A stretch of DNA of 64,000 nt, taken from NCBI GenBank assembly GCA_021774735.1, contig JAJFIS010000041.1, positions 1 to 64,000 on the forward strand. Direction: 5' to 3'. This document shows, piece by piece, positions 1-5,527 of this stretch. A model generated the notes under the pieces. The model was not told the DNA's origin, searched no databases, and was given only the letters and a program-made list of their open reading frames with translations. Source of the stretch: Alphaproteobacteria bacterium (lineage in GTDB: Bacteria > Pseudomonadota > Alphaproteobacteria > Sphingomonadales > Kordiimonadaceae). The position numbers and the translations under genes are program-made. Every line of letters starts with the position of its first letter. Positions within the stretch are counted from its first letter, which is position 1.

Positions 1-1
1 A

Positions 2-91
2 AAGTGGACAATGGCCCCCAGAGTGTGGAAGCAGGCCATGAACCAATTCGCCGTCCTGTTCCATGACCGTTTTCCAACATCAATATATTGA
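2..91 (+). CDS. C-terminal end of IS256-family-like transposase (partial)
   Basis: Frame 2 from the window edge encodes 29 residues, beginning KWTMAPRVWKQAMNQF and ending with a TGA at 89-91. The pattern KWTM..xxW....NQFA.LF.DR is that seen at the extreme C-terminus of IS256/mutator-type DDE transposases. The catalytic domain lies upstream, outside the window. The stop codon falls inside a perfect palindrome (71-100). With only 29 residues visible, the family call is a judgement from the motif. Confidence 0.55.
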   Translation, partial: KWTMAPRVWKQAMNQFAVLFHDRFPTSIY

Positions 92-100
92 TGTTGGAAA
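71..100. repeat. Perfect 30-bp palindrome spanning the transposase stop codon
   Basis: TTTCCAACATCAATA followed by its exact reverse complement, with no spacer, occupies 71-100. It could be a cruciform, an operator for a dimeric regulator or an IS-internal 3' hairpin limiting read-through into the array. No T-run follows on the + strand, so it is not a canonical intrinsic terminator. Its position just inside the IS end suggests it belongs to the element. Confidence 0.85.
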
Positions 101-157
101 TATAACCAAATGGTCACTTACACGGAATTTAGGACACTACCGTGGCTTATAGAAATT

Positions 158-721
158 GCCATAGCTTCCCTTCCGACACGGTTATGCTATGGTGATACTT
201 ATGCAATAAGCTATACGAGCGGAGCCATAGCTTCCCTTCCGACACGGTTATGCTATGGTATTAACACAAGTAACAGTGACTTCTGCTGGGCCATAGCTTC
301 CCTTCCGACACGGTTATGCTATGGTACTTGGGAGGGCGACCATAGGCTTGTTGTGGCCATAGCTTCCCTTCCGACACGGTTATGCTATGGTCCAAGTCTC
401 CCCGAAGAAAAAAGGTTTCCGGCCATAGCTTCCCTTCCGACACGGTTATGCTATGGTCTCATCAGCAGCGACAAACGAGCCTGCACCGCCATAGCTTCCC
501 TTCCGACACGGTTATGCTATGGTTCATGACCTTCAATGGGCAGGGTTGGAACAGCCATAGCTTCCCTTCCGACACGGTTATGCTATGGTAAACCCGAGGG
601 AGCGGTCTATGTCGGGCGCGCCATAGCTTCCCTTCCGACACGGTTATGCTATGGTTTAATTCAATAAAATATGCCTTGCCCTTACGCCATAGCTTCCCTT
701 CCGACACGGTTATGCTATGGT
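158..721 (+). CRISPR. Type II-C CRISPR array, 9 repeats and 8 spacers
   Basis: Nine identical 36-bp repeats start at 158, 224, 290, 356, 422, 488, 554, 620 and 686, an exact 66-bp period leaving eight 30-bp spacers. The repeat begins GCCATAGCTTCCCTTCC and ends CGGTTATGCTATGGT; its two ends are partly complementary (CCATAGC/GCTATGG). By comparison with Neisseria-type II-C repeats the + strand is the crRNA sense. The tracrRNA gene at about 5125-5230 agrees, since its anti-repeat pairs with this strand. Each repeat ends in TGCTATGGT, an extended -10-like element, so each spacer may have its own promoter. No repeat is degenerate. The left edge is cut close by an insertion sequence. I found no spacer matching elsewhere in the window by eye. 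Confidence 0.98.
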
Positions 722-737
722 AGATTTCTGGTAAAGG

Positions 738-795
738 TCTGAAAATAAAAGAAAAAGGCTGAATGGTTTAAAATAATACAAGCTGTTCAGCCTTT
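738..795 (-). terminator. Rho-independent terminator of the cas operon
   Basis: Read on the minus strand, AAAGGCTGAA (795-786) and TTCAGCCTTT (763-754) form a perfect 10-bp stem with a 22-nt loop, followed by a T-rich run (TTTTTCTTTTATTTT). The stem overlaps the last codons of cas2. It would stop cas9-cas1-cas2 transcripts before they run antisense into the CRISPR array, which is transcribed toward them. Confidence 0.75.
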
Positions 796-1097
796 GTTTC
801 TTCGTTATTTTTGCGTGTTCCGACAAGAATTTTCATCCGTTCATACTGCTTATCCGTTATTTTTAACGACCTTACGCTGCCTTCTGATGGCAAAATATTG
901 TCTAAACGGCGTAAATGTTTTTCGACTCGGTCCTTACCGTTACAAATACGAGCGTAGACAGAATATTGTATCATCATATAGCCATCTTTCAAAAGAAAAT
1001 TACGAAAGCGAGAGGCCGTCTTGCGCTCTGATTTCGTGTGAGTTGGTAAGTCATAGAAAACAAAGAGCCACATAAATCTATCCTTTGTTGCACTCAT
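768..1097 (-). CDS. cas2: CRISPR-associated endonuclease Cas2, type II
   Basis: 109 residues, the usual Cas2 length. The N-terminal strand carries the conserved FVFYDLP motif with the family Asp, followed by a ferredoxin-like fold pattern (RFRNFLLKDGYMMIQYSVY). Cas2 forms the structural core of the Cas1-Cas2 spacer-integration complex. The ATG overlaps the cas1 stop by 4 nt, implying translational coupling. It is the last gene of the operon; the terminator stem lies in its final codons. The order cas9-cas1-cas2 with no fourth gene defines subtype II-C. Confidence 0.96.
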   Translation of the reverse strand: MSATKDRFMWLFVFYDLPTHTKSERKTASRFRNFLLKDGYMMIQYSVYARICNGKDRVEKHLRRLDNILPSEGSVRSLKITDKQYERMKILVGTRKNNEETKAEQLVLF

Positions 1098-1999
1098 GTT
1101 TCTTCCCCTAGAGTAAAACCGACAAGCGGCAAAAGCGCAGGGCTTTTATTTTCCATGGCGCTCATCAGGCCTGCAGCCATTTTATCGCATACACTAGCGA
1201 GGGTATGGGTCTCTTCATCCATCTTACATAACCATGTGCCAGCCCCTGCCAAATGCTGGCGACATTCGATAGACAAGCTGTCCCCTTCATCCAATAAGCC
1301 CTGACCTTTCATTTCAAAAACATGGTGATCGACAAAGGGGCGAAAAACCTCCATCAGGTCATCCGTCAGGTTAAAAGCATTCAGTTCATTGCAATGATGC
1401 AACCCAAAAGCAGGCATAAGGCCATAAGCAACCTGCGCCCGCGCAACATAGGCCCGTATAACCGCATAGCCATAATTAAGTGCTGCATTGACAAGGTCAG
1501 TATCGCCACGCCTAAAACCTTTACCCATTAAGCGTTGCCAGTAATAACGCGCGGCTTGGGCTTCTATATTGCTTGGGTCGCCAGGCTTAACGTGATTGGC
1601 GAGGGCAATAAGGCGTTTGGCTTTCCTTCCCGATATCTTTAAACAGGCCGCTTGATTAGAGATTTTTGATTGAATGACCCTTTGCCATAATCGTTTTTTT
1701 AGCGCCTCAGAGCAAGACTGTTGAATATAAGCGACGCGGCTTTGTCGGCTATGGGCATGAAAGGGCAGCATCAAACCATTTGGCATATGGCTTTTATCAC
1801 AGGTGATAACCGCCACCCCTTGATCTTGCGCATATGACAATAAGCTTGCGTTCAAGCTTATTTGTGGTGATTCTAATATAAGGGCGATCACATCCTCAAG
1901 CGGCAAGCTATATGTGCCATCTTCATTTTCAAGCTGTAATTGCCCGTTGACCAGTCTAAGCTTCGCTGGGTTTTGGATGAGAATTGTGCGCCACGCCAA
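1094..1999 (-). CDS. cas1: CRISPR-associated endonuclease Cas1, type II
   Basis: Integrase subunit of the spacer-acquisition complex. The natural N-terminus appears to be the TTG codon at 1999, giving (M)AWRTILIQNPAKL, which matches the usual Cas1 opening; AAGGAG lies 7 nt upstream (2012-2007). That gives 301 residues. An ATG at 2083 would add 28 residues without family similarity. Likely metal ligands are the Glu in NIEAQAARYYW, the His in AFGLHHCNELN and an Asp in the following DLMEVFRPFVDH segment. The start and its SD lie inside the end of cas9, a 44-nt overlap; the 3' end overlaps cas2 by 4 nt. Confidence 0.95.
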   Translation of the reverse strand: MAWRTILIQNPAKLRLVNGQLQLENEDGTYSLPLEDVIALILESPQISLNASLLSYAQDQGVAVITCDKSHMPNGLMLPFHAHSRQSRVAYIQQSCSEALKKRLWQRVIQSKISNQAACLKISGRKAKRLIALANHVKPGDPSNIEAQAARYYWQRLMGKGFRRGDTDLVNAALNYGYAVIRAYVARAQVAYGLMPAFGLHHCNELNAFNLTDDLMEVFRPFVDHHVFEMKGQGLLDEGDSLSIECRQHLAGAGTWLCKMDEETHTLASVCDKMAAGLMSAMENKSPALLPLVGFTLGEET

Positions 2000-4900
2000 G
2001 TCTTGTCTCCTTGCCAACTTTATATTTATTGCCGAAATAATCCACGCTATATTTTTCAAAGGAAAGCAGGGTTTTAACGCCAACGCTTTCTATGCCGTCA
2101 CCTTTTTTGCCGAAAGATGGGTCTCGGTCATGAGCCTTAACCGTGATTGCACCTGTTCCTCGATGCGTTCCTCCATAATATGCAAAATATTCATCTTTCT
2201 TGCTTTTGATAAACAGCAGATCATTTTTACAAAGGGAGAAGAGAAAATTATCAATTTCCATGACTTCCCATTCCTCTTCAGGTTTGTATGCAATGATAGC
2301 TTTATTCGGCAGTTCACCACTTACAAAATGATGGACATAAATAGGTACGAGGAAATATTTACCGTTCTTTTGAAAAACATCCACGCGCACCATATCGCCG
2401 TTGCTGGCAAGACCGCCATTTATCTCGATACCTGATTTCTCTGTCGTCTCTACCCGCACTGAATTAATGCGAGGCCCCTGTTTGGCGGGGTCATTGGTCG
2501 GCATATGGACAGGTTCTGCAAAGGCTTTTTGGGGGTCCCCTTTATGGCTATCCAACCGTTCTTTTAAAACCGTATAGAGCTTACTATTGCGCTCTTTATC
2601 TACCATTTTCTCCAACATTGCAGGCTTCAAATCTCCAACTTTGATACGCTGAATGATTTTACCGTCACTTTTGCGAATGCTTCGGATCGTTTCCTGATGC
2701 GCTGGACCCGTAATTTTCCGTGCAGGCATGCGCGATACAAAAATAGCATCGCGGGCGGCCTCCGCAACCTTTCTAAAGCCTTCCCAAGGCAAGGGTGGTA
2801 AGGCTCGCTTTTCAGGGTTTTTGCGCCGGGCTTCATATTTATTCCAGTGCGTTAATTTTTGCACCATGCTTTGGGTAGAACAAGCAATAACAATGGCGTC
2901 CAGTGCATGATGCTTATCATTGCGACGGTCTTTATCAGGAAAACCCCAGGCACCACGCAAATGGGCCGTCAACGCCCCATTGCGAGTTTGCACACGGTTG
3001 CCCTCACCTAAATCCAGCGATTGCTCAATATGATTTTTAAGTAGTTTGGCAATATAGCGTGTATCATTCAAGGCACGCTCTTTCCACTTTTCAGCTTTTT
3101 CTGCGTCAAAATGCGCTGTTAACAAATTATCGGATTTGGCTTTAGGTAGGCCTTTTGCAATAGCCTCCAACTGCTCTAACGGCCTGCCCTGCTTTTCAAA
3201 ATATTCCACAGGTGTATCGTTGCGTTTCATCTGATTTTCGTCTGTGCAACACAACACTTTGTTCATATAACTATCATTCCATGACCTGCTGTACGGCAAT
3301 ATATGATCAATTTGAGTTGCCGTTGGGTCGCGTAGCATCCGATGATCAATATAAACACCTGAATAGGGACAAAATCCCTTTTGTTCTTTCCATAGACGAT
3401 ATTTTAAAATATCTCCGCCGCGCACATTATCAGGCTCTATTCCCAATATTTCTGCCGCATGTTTTTTGGCATCTTCACGGTATGCCTGATATTTTTTCTG
3501 CTCTCGTTCTTTATCTTTACGATCTTTGAAAGAACGCCCTGCCTCCCGCGCCATTTCAACGATGATTGTCTCAGGCATGCCGTATTGACGAATAACCGCA
3601 TTAATGACCTTGCGCGTTTGTGCCAGTGCGCGGTTTACAACAGGATTGCGCACATCTTCAAAAGGAGGTATTTTTGTGAGGCCCTTATTATCTTTTCCGC
3701 TGTGATCATAGCCTGCTTTTTTGCAAGCTTTATCATAGGTTAGCCCCTGTTGCATGAACGGTAAAATCGCACGAACAACTTTCAATGACAAATCAATCGT
3801 TTTGCTAAAATTAGTGACCGTCAGTAATGATTGGATTTGATCTTCATGCAGATTAAGCGGCGCAAATAAGTCTCTGATTTCTTGTTCGCTCTCATAAAAA
3901 GATAATATATGTGCTATTTCATCAAGAATAATACGCTTAGAGCCAATCCATTGTTGCCAATCAATATCACTGCCGGAGGCAAGCTTGTCTTTCAGTGTTT
4001 GATATCCCGGCAAACGCAGCCAGACGGACCTTTCCGCTCTGTCCCGTATTTTTTCCCATGTGTCGTCCGCATCATTTACTTTACGGTAACTCATGTTAAA
4101 CCGCATATCGTCTGTTAGCGCCAACGCTTTACGGGCCTGTTTGAAGCTCACACCGCTTTTATTTTTATGAGCTAAATCGGCAAGTTTATTTTTTTCATCT
4201 TGGGATAACTCTCGTTCAATACTGTTAATATCGCGTATTTTAGTATTATTCAGCTTTGACCAAAGCACAAAAAGCTCGGCGCTATAAGCAAATTTAGGGG
4301 CGCGTCTTTCGGATGGCTCTAAAGTACAATACCCCACCATTTTAATAGAGGATTGTAAGTCACGCTGGCAAAAGGCAATACCGCTGCCCTCTAATGTATA
4401 TTTCTTATCTGCCTCACCATTGCCAGCGTAAGCATGTTCCAGCTCTTTTGTGGCTTTGATGTTACTAAATAACCGTTGGGCAGTGAATATTGCTCTCACT
4501 TCTTGACGCAACAAATCACGCGTTACAAAATTATCGTAAGAACCATGACCATTACGCTGCTTATCCTGAGTAGCTAAGTAAGCACCAACAGTGTTTTCAC
4601 CACTGCGCACCATAGCTTCTTGTAATTCTATAGCACCACTTAAGGCCTTTTTACCTTCGGTATCATTCGCCTCTGCCCCTTTTCGATTTGACTGATAGCC
4701 ACGACGTTTTGCGATGTGAAAAAATACGCGAGCAAACTCTGCATCTGTCAAAATACGTTCGAGTGATTCTTTACGTAAGTCCCACGGAGACTTCTGGTGG
4801 CCTTTTGCATCAATAGCATTAACATTCTCAAAACCATGTTCAGCAAGTAAACGTCGAATAGCTCTTTTACGTTGCGACCGTCTACCTGTCACTCTACGCA

Positions 4901-5066
4901 TACCACGTTTGGTACGGCGCGGTTCAGCAAGCGATGCCCCTGTTTTCGGGTTTTCCGCCGCTTCAAAAATATGCGCACCAGAACAGACTACTCGTTGCGC
5001 ATTTAAATCAACACCTGCAAATCCCACTGATGCTATCCCAATATCAACCCCAAGATTATATGGCAT
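1956..5066 (-). CDS. cas9: CRISPR-associated endonuclease Cas9, compact type II-C
   Basis: RNA-guided DNA endonuclease, 1036 residues, in the short II-C size class (Neisseria and Parvibaculum enzymes are of similar length). Visible in order: RuvC-I with Asp8 in GVDIGIASVG; an Arg-rich bridge helix (about 49-75); an alpha-helical recognition lobe (about 80-480); RuvC-II with Glu504 in IIVEMAREAG; the HNH domain with Asp587-His588 in QIDHILPYSRS and Asn611; RuvC-III with His719-His720 and Asp723 in NDKHHALDAIV; then a wedge/PAM-interacting region to the end. All catalytic residues are present, so it should cut both strands. ATG start with AGGAGGG 7-8 nt upstream (5080-5074). First gene of the cas9-cas1-cas2 operon. 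The PAM cannot be read from sequence. Confidence 0.98.
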   Translation of the reverse strand: MPYNLGVDIGIASVGFAGVDLNAQRVVCSGAHIFEAAENPKTGASLAEPRRTKRGMRRVTGRRSQRKRAIRRLLAEHGFENVNAIDAKGHQKSPWDLRKESLERILTDAEFARVFFHIAKRRGYQSNRKGAEANDTEGKKALSGAIELQEAMVRSGENTVGAYLATQDKQRNGHGSYDNFVTRDLLRQEVRAIFTAQRLFSNIKATKELEHAYAGNGEADKKYTLEGSGIAFCQRDLQSSIKMVGYCTLEPSERRAPKFAYSAELFVLWSKLNNTKIRDINSIERELSQDEKNKLADLAHKNKSGVSFKQARKALALTDDMRFNMSYRKVNDADDTWEKIRDRAERSVWLRLPGYQTLKDKLASGSDIDWQQWIGSKRIILDEIAHILSFYESEQEIRDLFAPLNLHEDQIQSLLTVTNFSKTIDLSLKVVRAILPFMQQGLTYDKACKKAGYDHSGKDNKGLTKIPPFEDVRNPVVNRALAQTRKVINAVIRQYGMPETIIVEMAREAGRSFKDRKDKEREQKKYQAYREDAKKHAAEILGIEPDNVRGGDILKYRLWKEQKGFCPYSGVYIDHRMLRDPTATQIDHILPYSRSWNDSYMNKVLCCTDENQMKRNDTPVEYFEKQGRPLEQLEAIAKGLPKAKSDNLLTAHFDAEKAEKWKERALNDTRYIAKLLKNHIEQSLDLGEGNRVQTRNGALTAHLRGAWGFPDKDRRNDKHHALDAIVIACSTQSMVQKLTHWNKYEARRKNPEKRALPPLPWEGFRKVAEAARDAIFVSRMPARKITGPAHQETIRSIRKSDGKIIQRIKVGDLKPAMLEKMVDKERNSKLYTVLKERLDSHKGDPQKAFAEPVHMPTNDPAKQGPRINSVRVETTEKSGIEINGGLASNGDMVRVDVFQKNGKYFLVPIYVHHFVSGELPNKAIIAYKPEEEWEVMEIDNFLFSLCKNDLLFIKSKKDEYFAYYGGTHRGTGAITVKAHDRDPSFGKKGDGIESVGVKTLLSFEKYSVDYFGNKYKVGKETRLGVAHNSHPKPSEA

Positions 5067-5088
5067 TGCTCAACCCTCCTAAAATTTC

Positions 5089-5118
5089 TTGACAAGTAGT
5101 AAGAACATATTTTATTGT
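5089..5118 (+). promoter_or_regulatory. Predicted tracrRNA promoter
   Basis: A consensus -35 TTGACA lies at 5089-5094 and a -10-like TATTGT at 5113-5118, separated by 18 bp. Transcription would start near 5125, just before the anti-repeat. The element lies between the divergent cas9 start (5066) and the tracrRNA, so the cas9 promoter probably overlaps it on the other strand. Confidence 0.6.
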
Positions 5119-5124
5119 AATTTA

Positions 5125-5230
5125 CAACTTATAGCATAACCGTGTCGGAATCGTTGTTATGGTAAGGTATCGAAAGATACCGCAAAGTTTCTGCCCCTAG
5201 CTGGTTTACCATCTAGGGGCATCTTTTATT
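5125..5230 (+). ncRNA. tracrRNA of the type II-C system
   Basis: ATAGCATAACCGTGTCGGAA at 5131-5150 is an exact 20-base match to the reverse complement of the CRISPR repeat. After a short mismatched bulge, the segment TCGTTGTTATGGT re-pairs with the repeat's 5' end (CCATAGC, using G-U pairs), the usual lower-stem/bulge/upper-stem duplex. Next come TAAGGTATCGAAAGATACC, a 6-bp hairpin with a GAAA loop, a short linker, and a 9-bp hairpin TGCCCCTAG...CTAGGGGCA (5192-5221) followed by TCTTTTATTT. Order and linker sequences closely resemble the Neisseria meningitidis tracrRNA. It is on the array strand, opposite cas9. The exact 5' end is inferred from the promoter. Confidence 0.93.
5192..5229 (+). 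terminator. Intrinsic terminator forming the tracrRNA 3' hairpin
   Basis: TGCCCCTAG (5192-5200) pairs with CTAGGGGCA (5213-5221), with GGT/ACC able to extend pairing inside the loop, followed by TCTTTTATTT. In Neisseria-type tracrRNAs the corresponding hairpin is both the Cas9-bound 3' structure and the transcription terminator. Confidence 0.85.
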
Positions 5231-5527
5231 TCTGGCTTGATACATGACGAGCCCTTTTTCCAATGAAGCGGCGATAAATAGTAAAGCCCATGAAAACTTA
5301 AATGATTACAGAGCTACCAAAGCATGAGGTTAGCCACTCTAGCCTTTTGATATTAATGATATATGTTAGTCCTGCAGGGCGGGCCAATAATAGAGGACAA
5401 GCGACAGAAATGTGGCCTGTCCTTTATTGTATTTAGACTATTTTTTAGCGCTCCCACCGTTGCATACGGCAGATAATAGCCCTAGGATAAGATTGATAAT
5501 TCACTGAGTATAAAGGCCCATTTTTCT
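5231..5527. other. Intergenic region, no gene seen
   Basis: No coding frame or CRISPR-like repeat was seen between the tracrRNA terminator and pmbA. The only structure is a weak 6-bp inverted repeat AGGACA (5394-5399)/TGTCCT (5418-5423) with an 18-nt loop, followed by TTATT. The pmbA promoter should lie in the last 100 bases, but no convincing -35/-10 pair could be chosen. Confidence 0.5.

What the first reader, a model, noticed from the sequence alone, without database searches (positions are those of the whole stretch)
158..5230. Complete compact type II-C CRISPR-Cas9 system with all parts in 5 kb
Array, cas2, cas1, a 1036-aa cas9 with all RuvC and HNH catalytic residues, and a tracrRNA gene are all present and intact. 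All nine repeats are identical and all spacers are 30 bp, with no repeat decay. The tracrRNA and array face one way and the cas genes the other. A small Cas9 from an environmental alphaproteobacterium may have its own PAM.
Basis: partly seen in the sequence, partly recalled or inferred. Interest (0 to 1): 0.75.

Follow-up and report, generated by a model that had tools for sequence, protein, structure and literature searches.

The report
CRISPR-Cas9 locus split by insertion sequence
This is an ordinary small bacterial CRISPR-Cas9 immune system, but its array is longer than the window shows because a mobile element has cut its oldest spacer in two, and the whole locus lies between a transfer-RNA gene and a duplicated tRNA end, which suggests it arrived as mobile DNA.

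Summary
Cas9, Cas1 and Cas2 match the curated type II models, carry every catalytic residue checked, and have relatives with the same layout in five other genomes. It is a genuine type II-C system.

It is not complete in 5 kb. The window starts at a contig end. A tenth identical repeat lies at the end of another contig (C44). The two ends are halves of one IS256-family element with matching 8-bp target duplications (GTGGCTTA), and removing it restores an exactly 30-bp spacer. The array therefore has 10 repeats and 9 spacers, with the cas-distal, presumably oldest, spacer split. This has been seen before in Flavobacterium psychrophilum.

Beyond that repeat is a tRNA-Arg(UCU) gene with a group I intron. 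Its last 20 nt recur at 5368-5387, just past the tracrRNA, like attachment sites of an integrated island. Cas proteins are 80-90% identical to a system in another family, while IlvD and PmbA are only 74% and 52%, so transfer is likely.

The PAM was not recovered. A key PAM-reading residue is His here but Asp in four relatives, which predicts a PAM shift.

The parts
1..141 (+). right end of an IS256-family element (end of its transposase gene plus terminal repeat); the rest of the element is missing from the assembly
   Evidence: frame reads ...VWKQAMNQFAVLFHDRFPTSIY; PF00872 Transposase_mut on the longer copies; eight right ends and eight left ends of the element in the genome
142..149 (+). 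8-bp target-site duplication GTGGCTTA; its partner is at L009:10113-10120 (contig C44)
142..157 (+). 3' part of the interrupted first spacer; rejoined spacer TATACATAAAATCAGTGGCTTATAGAAATT is exactly 30 bp
158..721 (+). CRISPR repeats 2-10 (36 bp, all identical) and spacers 2-9 (30 bp); repeat 1 is at C44:51062-51097
768..1097 (-). cas2 (109 aa)
   Evidence: TIGR01573 90.4 bits, cut-off 24.5; 90% identical to the G027 homologue
1094..1999 (-). cas1; most likely start is the TTG at 1999, overlapping cas9
   Evidence: TIGR03639 279 bits, cut-off 120; catalytic E/H/E align with solved type II Cas1
1956..5066 (-). cas9, 1036 aa, NmeCas9-like
   Evidence: TIGR01865 728 bits, cut-off 100; best solved chains are NmeCas9; D8, E504, D587, H588, N611, H720, D723 conserved
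5089..5118 (+). candidate tracrRNA promoter TTGACA-18 nt-TATTGT
   Evidence: consensus match only
5128..5228 (+). tracrRNA: anti-repeat 5131-5165, stem GGTATCGAAAGATACC, terminator hairpin about 5192-5221
   Evidence: duplex with repeat -49 kcal/mol; stem kept by two-sided changes in relatives
5368..5387 (+). 20-nt copy of the 3' end of tRNA-Arg(UCU), attR-like; the intact tRNA is at L009:9564-9911 on C44
   Evidence: exact 20-nt match, chance about 5e-9 in this region; tRNA single copy

Best explanation
A genuine, probably working type II-C CRISPR-Cas9 locus gained by horizontal transfer and lodged at a tRNA-Arg(UCU) gene. Each repeat ends in an extended -10-like element and so probably starts its own short pre-crRNA reading towards cas2. 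The divergently placed tracrRNA pairs with the repeat, RNase III trims the duplex, and Cas9 cuts matching DNA; Cas1-Cas2 add spacers at the cas2-side repeat. Later an IS256-family element inserted in the cas-distal, oldest spacer. Because promoters sit in the repeats, only that spacer should be lost and the other eight should still be read. Shown here: gene and RNA anatomy, catalytic residues, the IS insertion with its duplication, the tRNA-end duplication, and excess similarity to a system in another family. Inferred: expression, processing, cleavage, direction of spacer acquisition, and integration by a tRNA-directed recombinase.
For: Profiles and solved homologues. Catalytic residues. Repeat/anti-repeat duplex and covarying tracrRNA stem. 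Same architecture in G027, G015, G063, L040 and L041. IS: 8 left and 8 right ends; 8-bp duplications pair six of the eight, including C44-C36; exact 30-bp spacer on rejoining. tRNA-end duplication. Transfer: Cas9/Cas1/Cas2 81/80/90% identical to G027, but IlvD 74% and PmbA 52%; homology block stops at the tracrRNA terminator. Literature: repeat promoters and last-repeat acquisition in II-C (PMC12080349); an IS256-split II-C array with both parts transcribed (PMC10309648).
Against: No expression data. No convincing protospacer for any spacer tested, so interference is not supported by target evidence. The C44-C36 join is inferred, not read across. No integrase lies between the two tRNA ends, and no empty site was found in relatives. 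Repeat-borne promoters have a weak -35 and the consensus scan did not list them.
Confidence: 0.85

Rival explanations
1. Contigs C44 and C36 carry two separate array fragments, or an assembly artefact, and the window array is complete with nine repeats.
For: No sequence crosses the gap; the IS is multicopy.
Against: Matching 8-bp duplication, an exactly 30-bp rejoined spacer, an identical repeat and IS halves in the right orientation. No contig carries both an IS left and right end, which argues against cargo between two copies.
Confidence: 0.05
2. The locus was inherited vertically; similarity to G027 reflects slow evolution of the cas genes.
For: Both genomes belong to the same order.
Against: Cas9 is more alike (81%) than IlvD (74%) and PmbA (52%). 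Of the same-family genomes sampled only one has a full-length homologue, at 38%. The genomic contexts differ.
Confidence: 0.1
3. The 20-nt tRNA end at 5368 is left over from another element and the CRISPR locus arrived by homologous or illegitimate recombination.
For: No integrase between the repeats; other relatives of the system show no tRNA by ARAGORN near them.
Against: Between the two tRNA ends only the CRISPR-Cas locus, its flanks and the IS are found. A type II-C locus beside tRNA-Gly is known in Bordetella pseudohinzii (PMC4624362).
Confidence: 0.3
4. The system is defunct, with the IS insertion as the first sign of decay.
For: Insertion into the array; no targets found.
Against: All cas frames and catalytic residues intact, ten identical repeats, intact tracrRNA; an IS256-split array in F. 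psychrophilum is transcribed (PMC10309648).
Confidence: 0.12

Closest known systems
Neisseria meningitidis type II-C CRISPR-Cas9 (NmeCas9)
   Same: cas9-cas1-cas2 only; 36-bp repeats and 30-bp spacers (own knowledge for Neisseria); divergent tracrRNA upstream of cas9; best-scoring solved Cas9 chains
   Different: distant in sequence; Q981 and N1029 equivalents are Ala; shorter protein (1036 vs 1082 aa)
Type II-C system of genome G027 (unnamed, same order, other family)
   Same: Cas9 81%, Cas1 80%, Cas2 90% identical; repeat differs at 2 of 36 bases; tracrRNA nearly identical
   Different: 34 repeats, no IS, next to a glucose-6-phosphate isomerase-like gene and not a tRNA; Asp instead of His at the H1024 position
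Flavobacterium psychrophilum CN46 type II-C locus
   Same: IS256-family element inside the array with target duplication; both parts of the array transcribed (PMC10309648)
   Different: Bacteroidota system with 46-bp repeats, and a further IS982 near cas9
Bordetella pseudohinzii type II-C locus
   Same: horizontally gained II-C locus with small Cas9 beside a tRNA gene (PMC4624362)
   Different: tRNA-Gly; no tRNA-end duplication appeared in the passages read

Membership tests
CRISPR-Cas type II | Cas9 with RuvC and HNH nuclease domains | tested here: met
   TIGR01865 728 bits; HNH_4 and RuvC_III above cut-off; catalytic residues aligned
CRISPR-Cas type II | tracrRNA with anti-repeat | tested here: met
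   repeat duplex -49 kcal/mol, terminator, covariation in six loci
CRISPR-Cas subtype II-C | only cas9, cas1 and cas2 (no csn2, no cas4) | tested here: met
   no other ORF of note between array and tracrRNA; next genes on both sides are not cas genes by inspection
CRISPR-Cas subtype II-C | array transcribed from promoters in the repeats | tested here: inconclusive
   extended -10-like repeat ends conserved in most of six loci, but no RNA data and no strong -35
CRISPR-Cas subtype II-C | RNA-guided DNA cleavage with a PAM | not testable with these tools
   no protospacer recovered
IS256 family | Mutator-type transposase and 8-bp target duplications | tested here: met
   PF00872 220 bits; 8-bp duplications in six pairs
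tRNA-integrated genomic island | direct repeat of the tRNA 3' end at both borders | tested here: met
   20-nt exact duplication
tRNA-integrated genomic island | integrase gene inside the island | tested here: not met
   none between the two repeats apart from the unassembled IS

The most novel reading that the evidence does not exclude
The type II-C locus is a minimal cassette without its own integrase that moves between tRNA attachment sites by a recombinase supplied in trans, and its Cas9 has switched PAM class (position 5 from C to A/G) from its close relatives through an Asp-to-His change.
Probability: 0.15. Interest if true: 0.6.

Novelty: new member of a known kind. Interest (0 to 1): 0.36.

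Why it matters
It adds a small Cas9 from a lineage without a solved close relative. Against its 81%-identical partner it offers a clean natural test of the PAM rule seen among Nme orthologues (His gives R, Asp gives C at position 5). The IS inside the oldest spacer gives a second, unrelated case for asking whether repeat-borne promoters shield an array from insertion damage. The tRNA-end duplication suggests how such loci move.

Tried and rejected
Spacers against phages, plasmids, own genome and about 400 genomes of the order: only chance-level matches. Exact 20-nt 3' ends of seven spacers in IMG/VR: one hit (L109:4030-4049, spacer 2), with most of the remaining 10 nt mismatched; by my estimate about 0.1 such hits per spacer are expected by chance, so no PAM was drawn from it. 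Arrays of G027, L041 and G015 against phages: nothing. A decayed extra repeat upstream of the C44 repeat (TTGCTATGGA, 30 bp before it): 13 of 36 matches in register and local score not above shuffles, rejected. Empty site in relatives: no tRNA near pmbA in any of the 29 other genomes examined and the left-hand neighbour gene is absent from the family. Integrase at tRNA-Arg(UCU) in relatives: none recognised by eye within 1.5 kb. Rfam found no family in the window. Composite transposon: no contig carries both a left and a right IS end.

Full report
Observation. The window is the first 64 kb of contig C36 of a 51-contig, 2.78-Mb genome. Nine identical 36-bp repeats, GCCATAGCTTCCCTTCCGACACGGTTATGCTATGGT, lie at 158-721 with eight 30-bp spacers. 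On the other strand are cas2 (768-1097), cas1 and cas9 (1956-5066, 1036 aa). All three exceed curated cut-offs: Cas9 TIGR01865 728 bits, Cas1 TIGR03639 279 bits, Cas2 TIGR01573 90 bits. Cas1 most likely starts at the TTG at 1999, where homology to solved type II Cas1 begins.

Catalysis. Against solved NmeCas9 chains and four relatives, D8, E504, D587, H588, N611, H720 and D723 are all present. The catalytic Glu, His and Glu of Cas1 align with solved chains 5xvn and 4zkj.

tracrRNA. The anti-repeat at 5131-5165 pairs with the repeat at -49 kcal/mol. It is followed by a short stem and a GC-rich terminator hairpin. In six related loci the predicted consensus has 11 pairs, five of which keep pairing through changes on both sides in at least one sequence. 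A TTGACA-18-TATTGT promoter-like site lies just upstream.

The array is split. A tenth identical repeat lies at C44:51062-51097, 162 bases from the end of that contig. The following bases run into the start of a transposase; the window's first 141 bases are the end of the same element. The genome holds eight left and eight right ends of it, most at contig ends. Longer copies match PF00872 Transposase_mut, and 8-bp duplications are as expected of IS256 elements (own knowledge). Comparing the duplications pairs six left ends with six right ends; C44 and C36 share GTGGCTTA. Rejoining the flanks gives TATACATAAAATCAGTGGCTTATAGAAATT, exactly 30 bp. The array thus has ten repeats and nine spacers.

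What the insertion should do. In type II-C systems each repeat carries its own promoter and new spacers enter at the last repeat (PMC12080349). Here the repeat ends in TGCTATGGT, and five relatives end in TGCTATGAT, TGATATAAT, TGCTATGAT, GGCTATGAT and TGATATGCT, most of them extended -10-like. The split spacer is then the oldest, and only it should be lost. An IS256 element inside a II-C array, with both parts still transcribed, has been reported in F. psychrophilum CN46 (PMC10309648), so the event is not new in kind. Natural IS insertions into CRISPR-Cas loci are reported from many hosts (PMC10359306).

Upstream of the first repeat on C44 are an 18-bp perfect hairpin and a small hairpin in the 30 nt before the repeat. 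These resemble two of the three devices proposed to silence the extra repeat in II-C arrays (PMC12080349). This is a resemblance, not a test.

tRNA borders. Next on C44 is a tRNA gene split by a group I intron (RF00028, 69.8 bits). Removing 271 nt (L009:9599-9869) gives a good tRNA-Arg(UCU). It is single copy by its 3' end. Its last 20 nt recur exactly at window 5368-5387, about 150 bp past the tracrRNA (chance about 5e-9), followed by a strong hairpin that could be the tRNA's original terminator. Between the two copies lie only the CRISPR-Cas locus, its flanks and the IS. This is the usual mark of integration at a tRNA 3' end, but there is no integrase and no empty site was found. A II-C locus next to tRNA-Gly is known in Bordetella pseudohinzii (PMC4624362).

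Transfer. The closest system, in G027 of another family in the same order, is 81/80/90% identical in Cas9/Cas1/Cas2, and the DNA homology ends at the tracrRNA terminator. IlvD and PmbA are 74% and 52% identical between the two genomes. Of the same-family genomes sampled, only one other has a full-length homologue, at 38%. The neighbourhoods differ. Horizontal transfer is the best reading.

PAM. No target gave a usable PAM. Of four NmeCas9 PAM residues (Q981, H1024, T1027, N1029; PMC9433092) this protein has Ala926, His968, Thr971 and Ala973. Four relatives, including the 81%-identical one, have Asp in place of His968. Among closer Nme orthologues His goes with A/G and Asp with C at PAM position 5 (PMC9433092). 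The prediction is N4R here and N4C in the relatives; it is inference at a larger evolutionary distance than the published set.

Verdict. Novelty: new member of a known kind.

Noticed in passing
L009:9564-9911 (contig C44): tRNA-Arg(UCU) gene interrupted in the anticodon loop by a 271-nt group I intron; several genomes of the same family have an uninterrupted version.
   Followed up: partly
contig ends of G000 (L076-L091): Eight copies of an IS256-family element account for many contig breaks; two left and two right ends have unmatched 8-bp flanks, suggesting rearrangement or loss at those copies.
   Followed up: partly
L009:9949-9991: 18-bp perfect inverted repeat (terminator-like, without a long T run) between the tRNA and the first CRISPR repeat.
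   Followed up: no
L109:4030-4049: Viral contig with an exact 20-nt match to the 3' end of spacer 2 in a small ORF near structural-looking genes; the rest of the spacer does not match, chance level.
   Followed up: partly
L009:8133-9383: 416-aa protein next to the tRNA with no homologue in 29 other genomes of the family.
   Followed up: no
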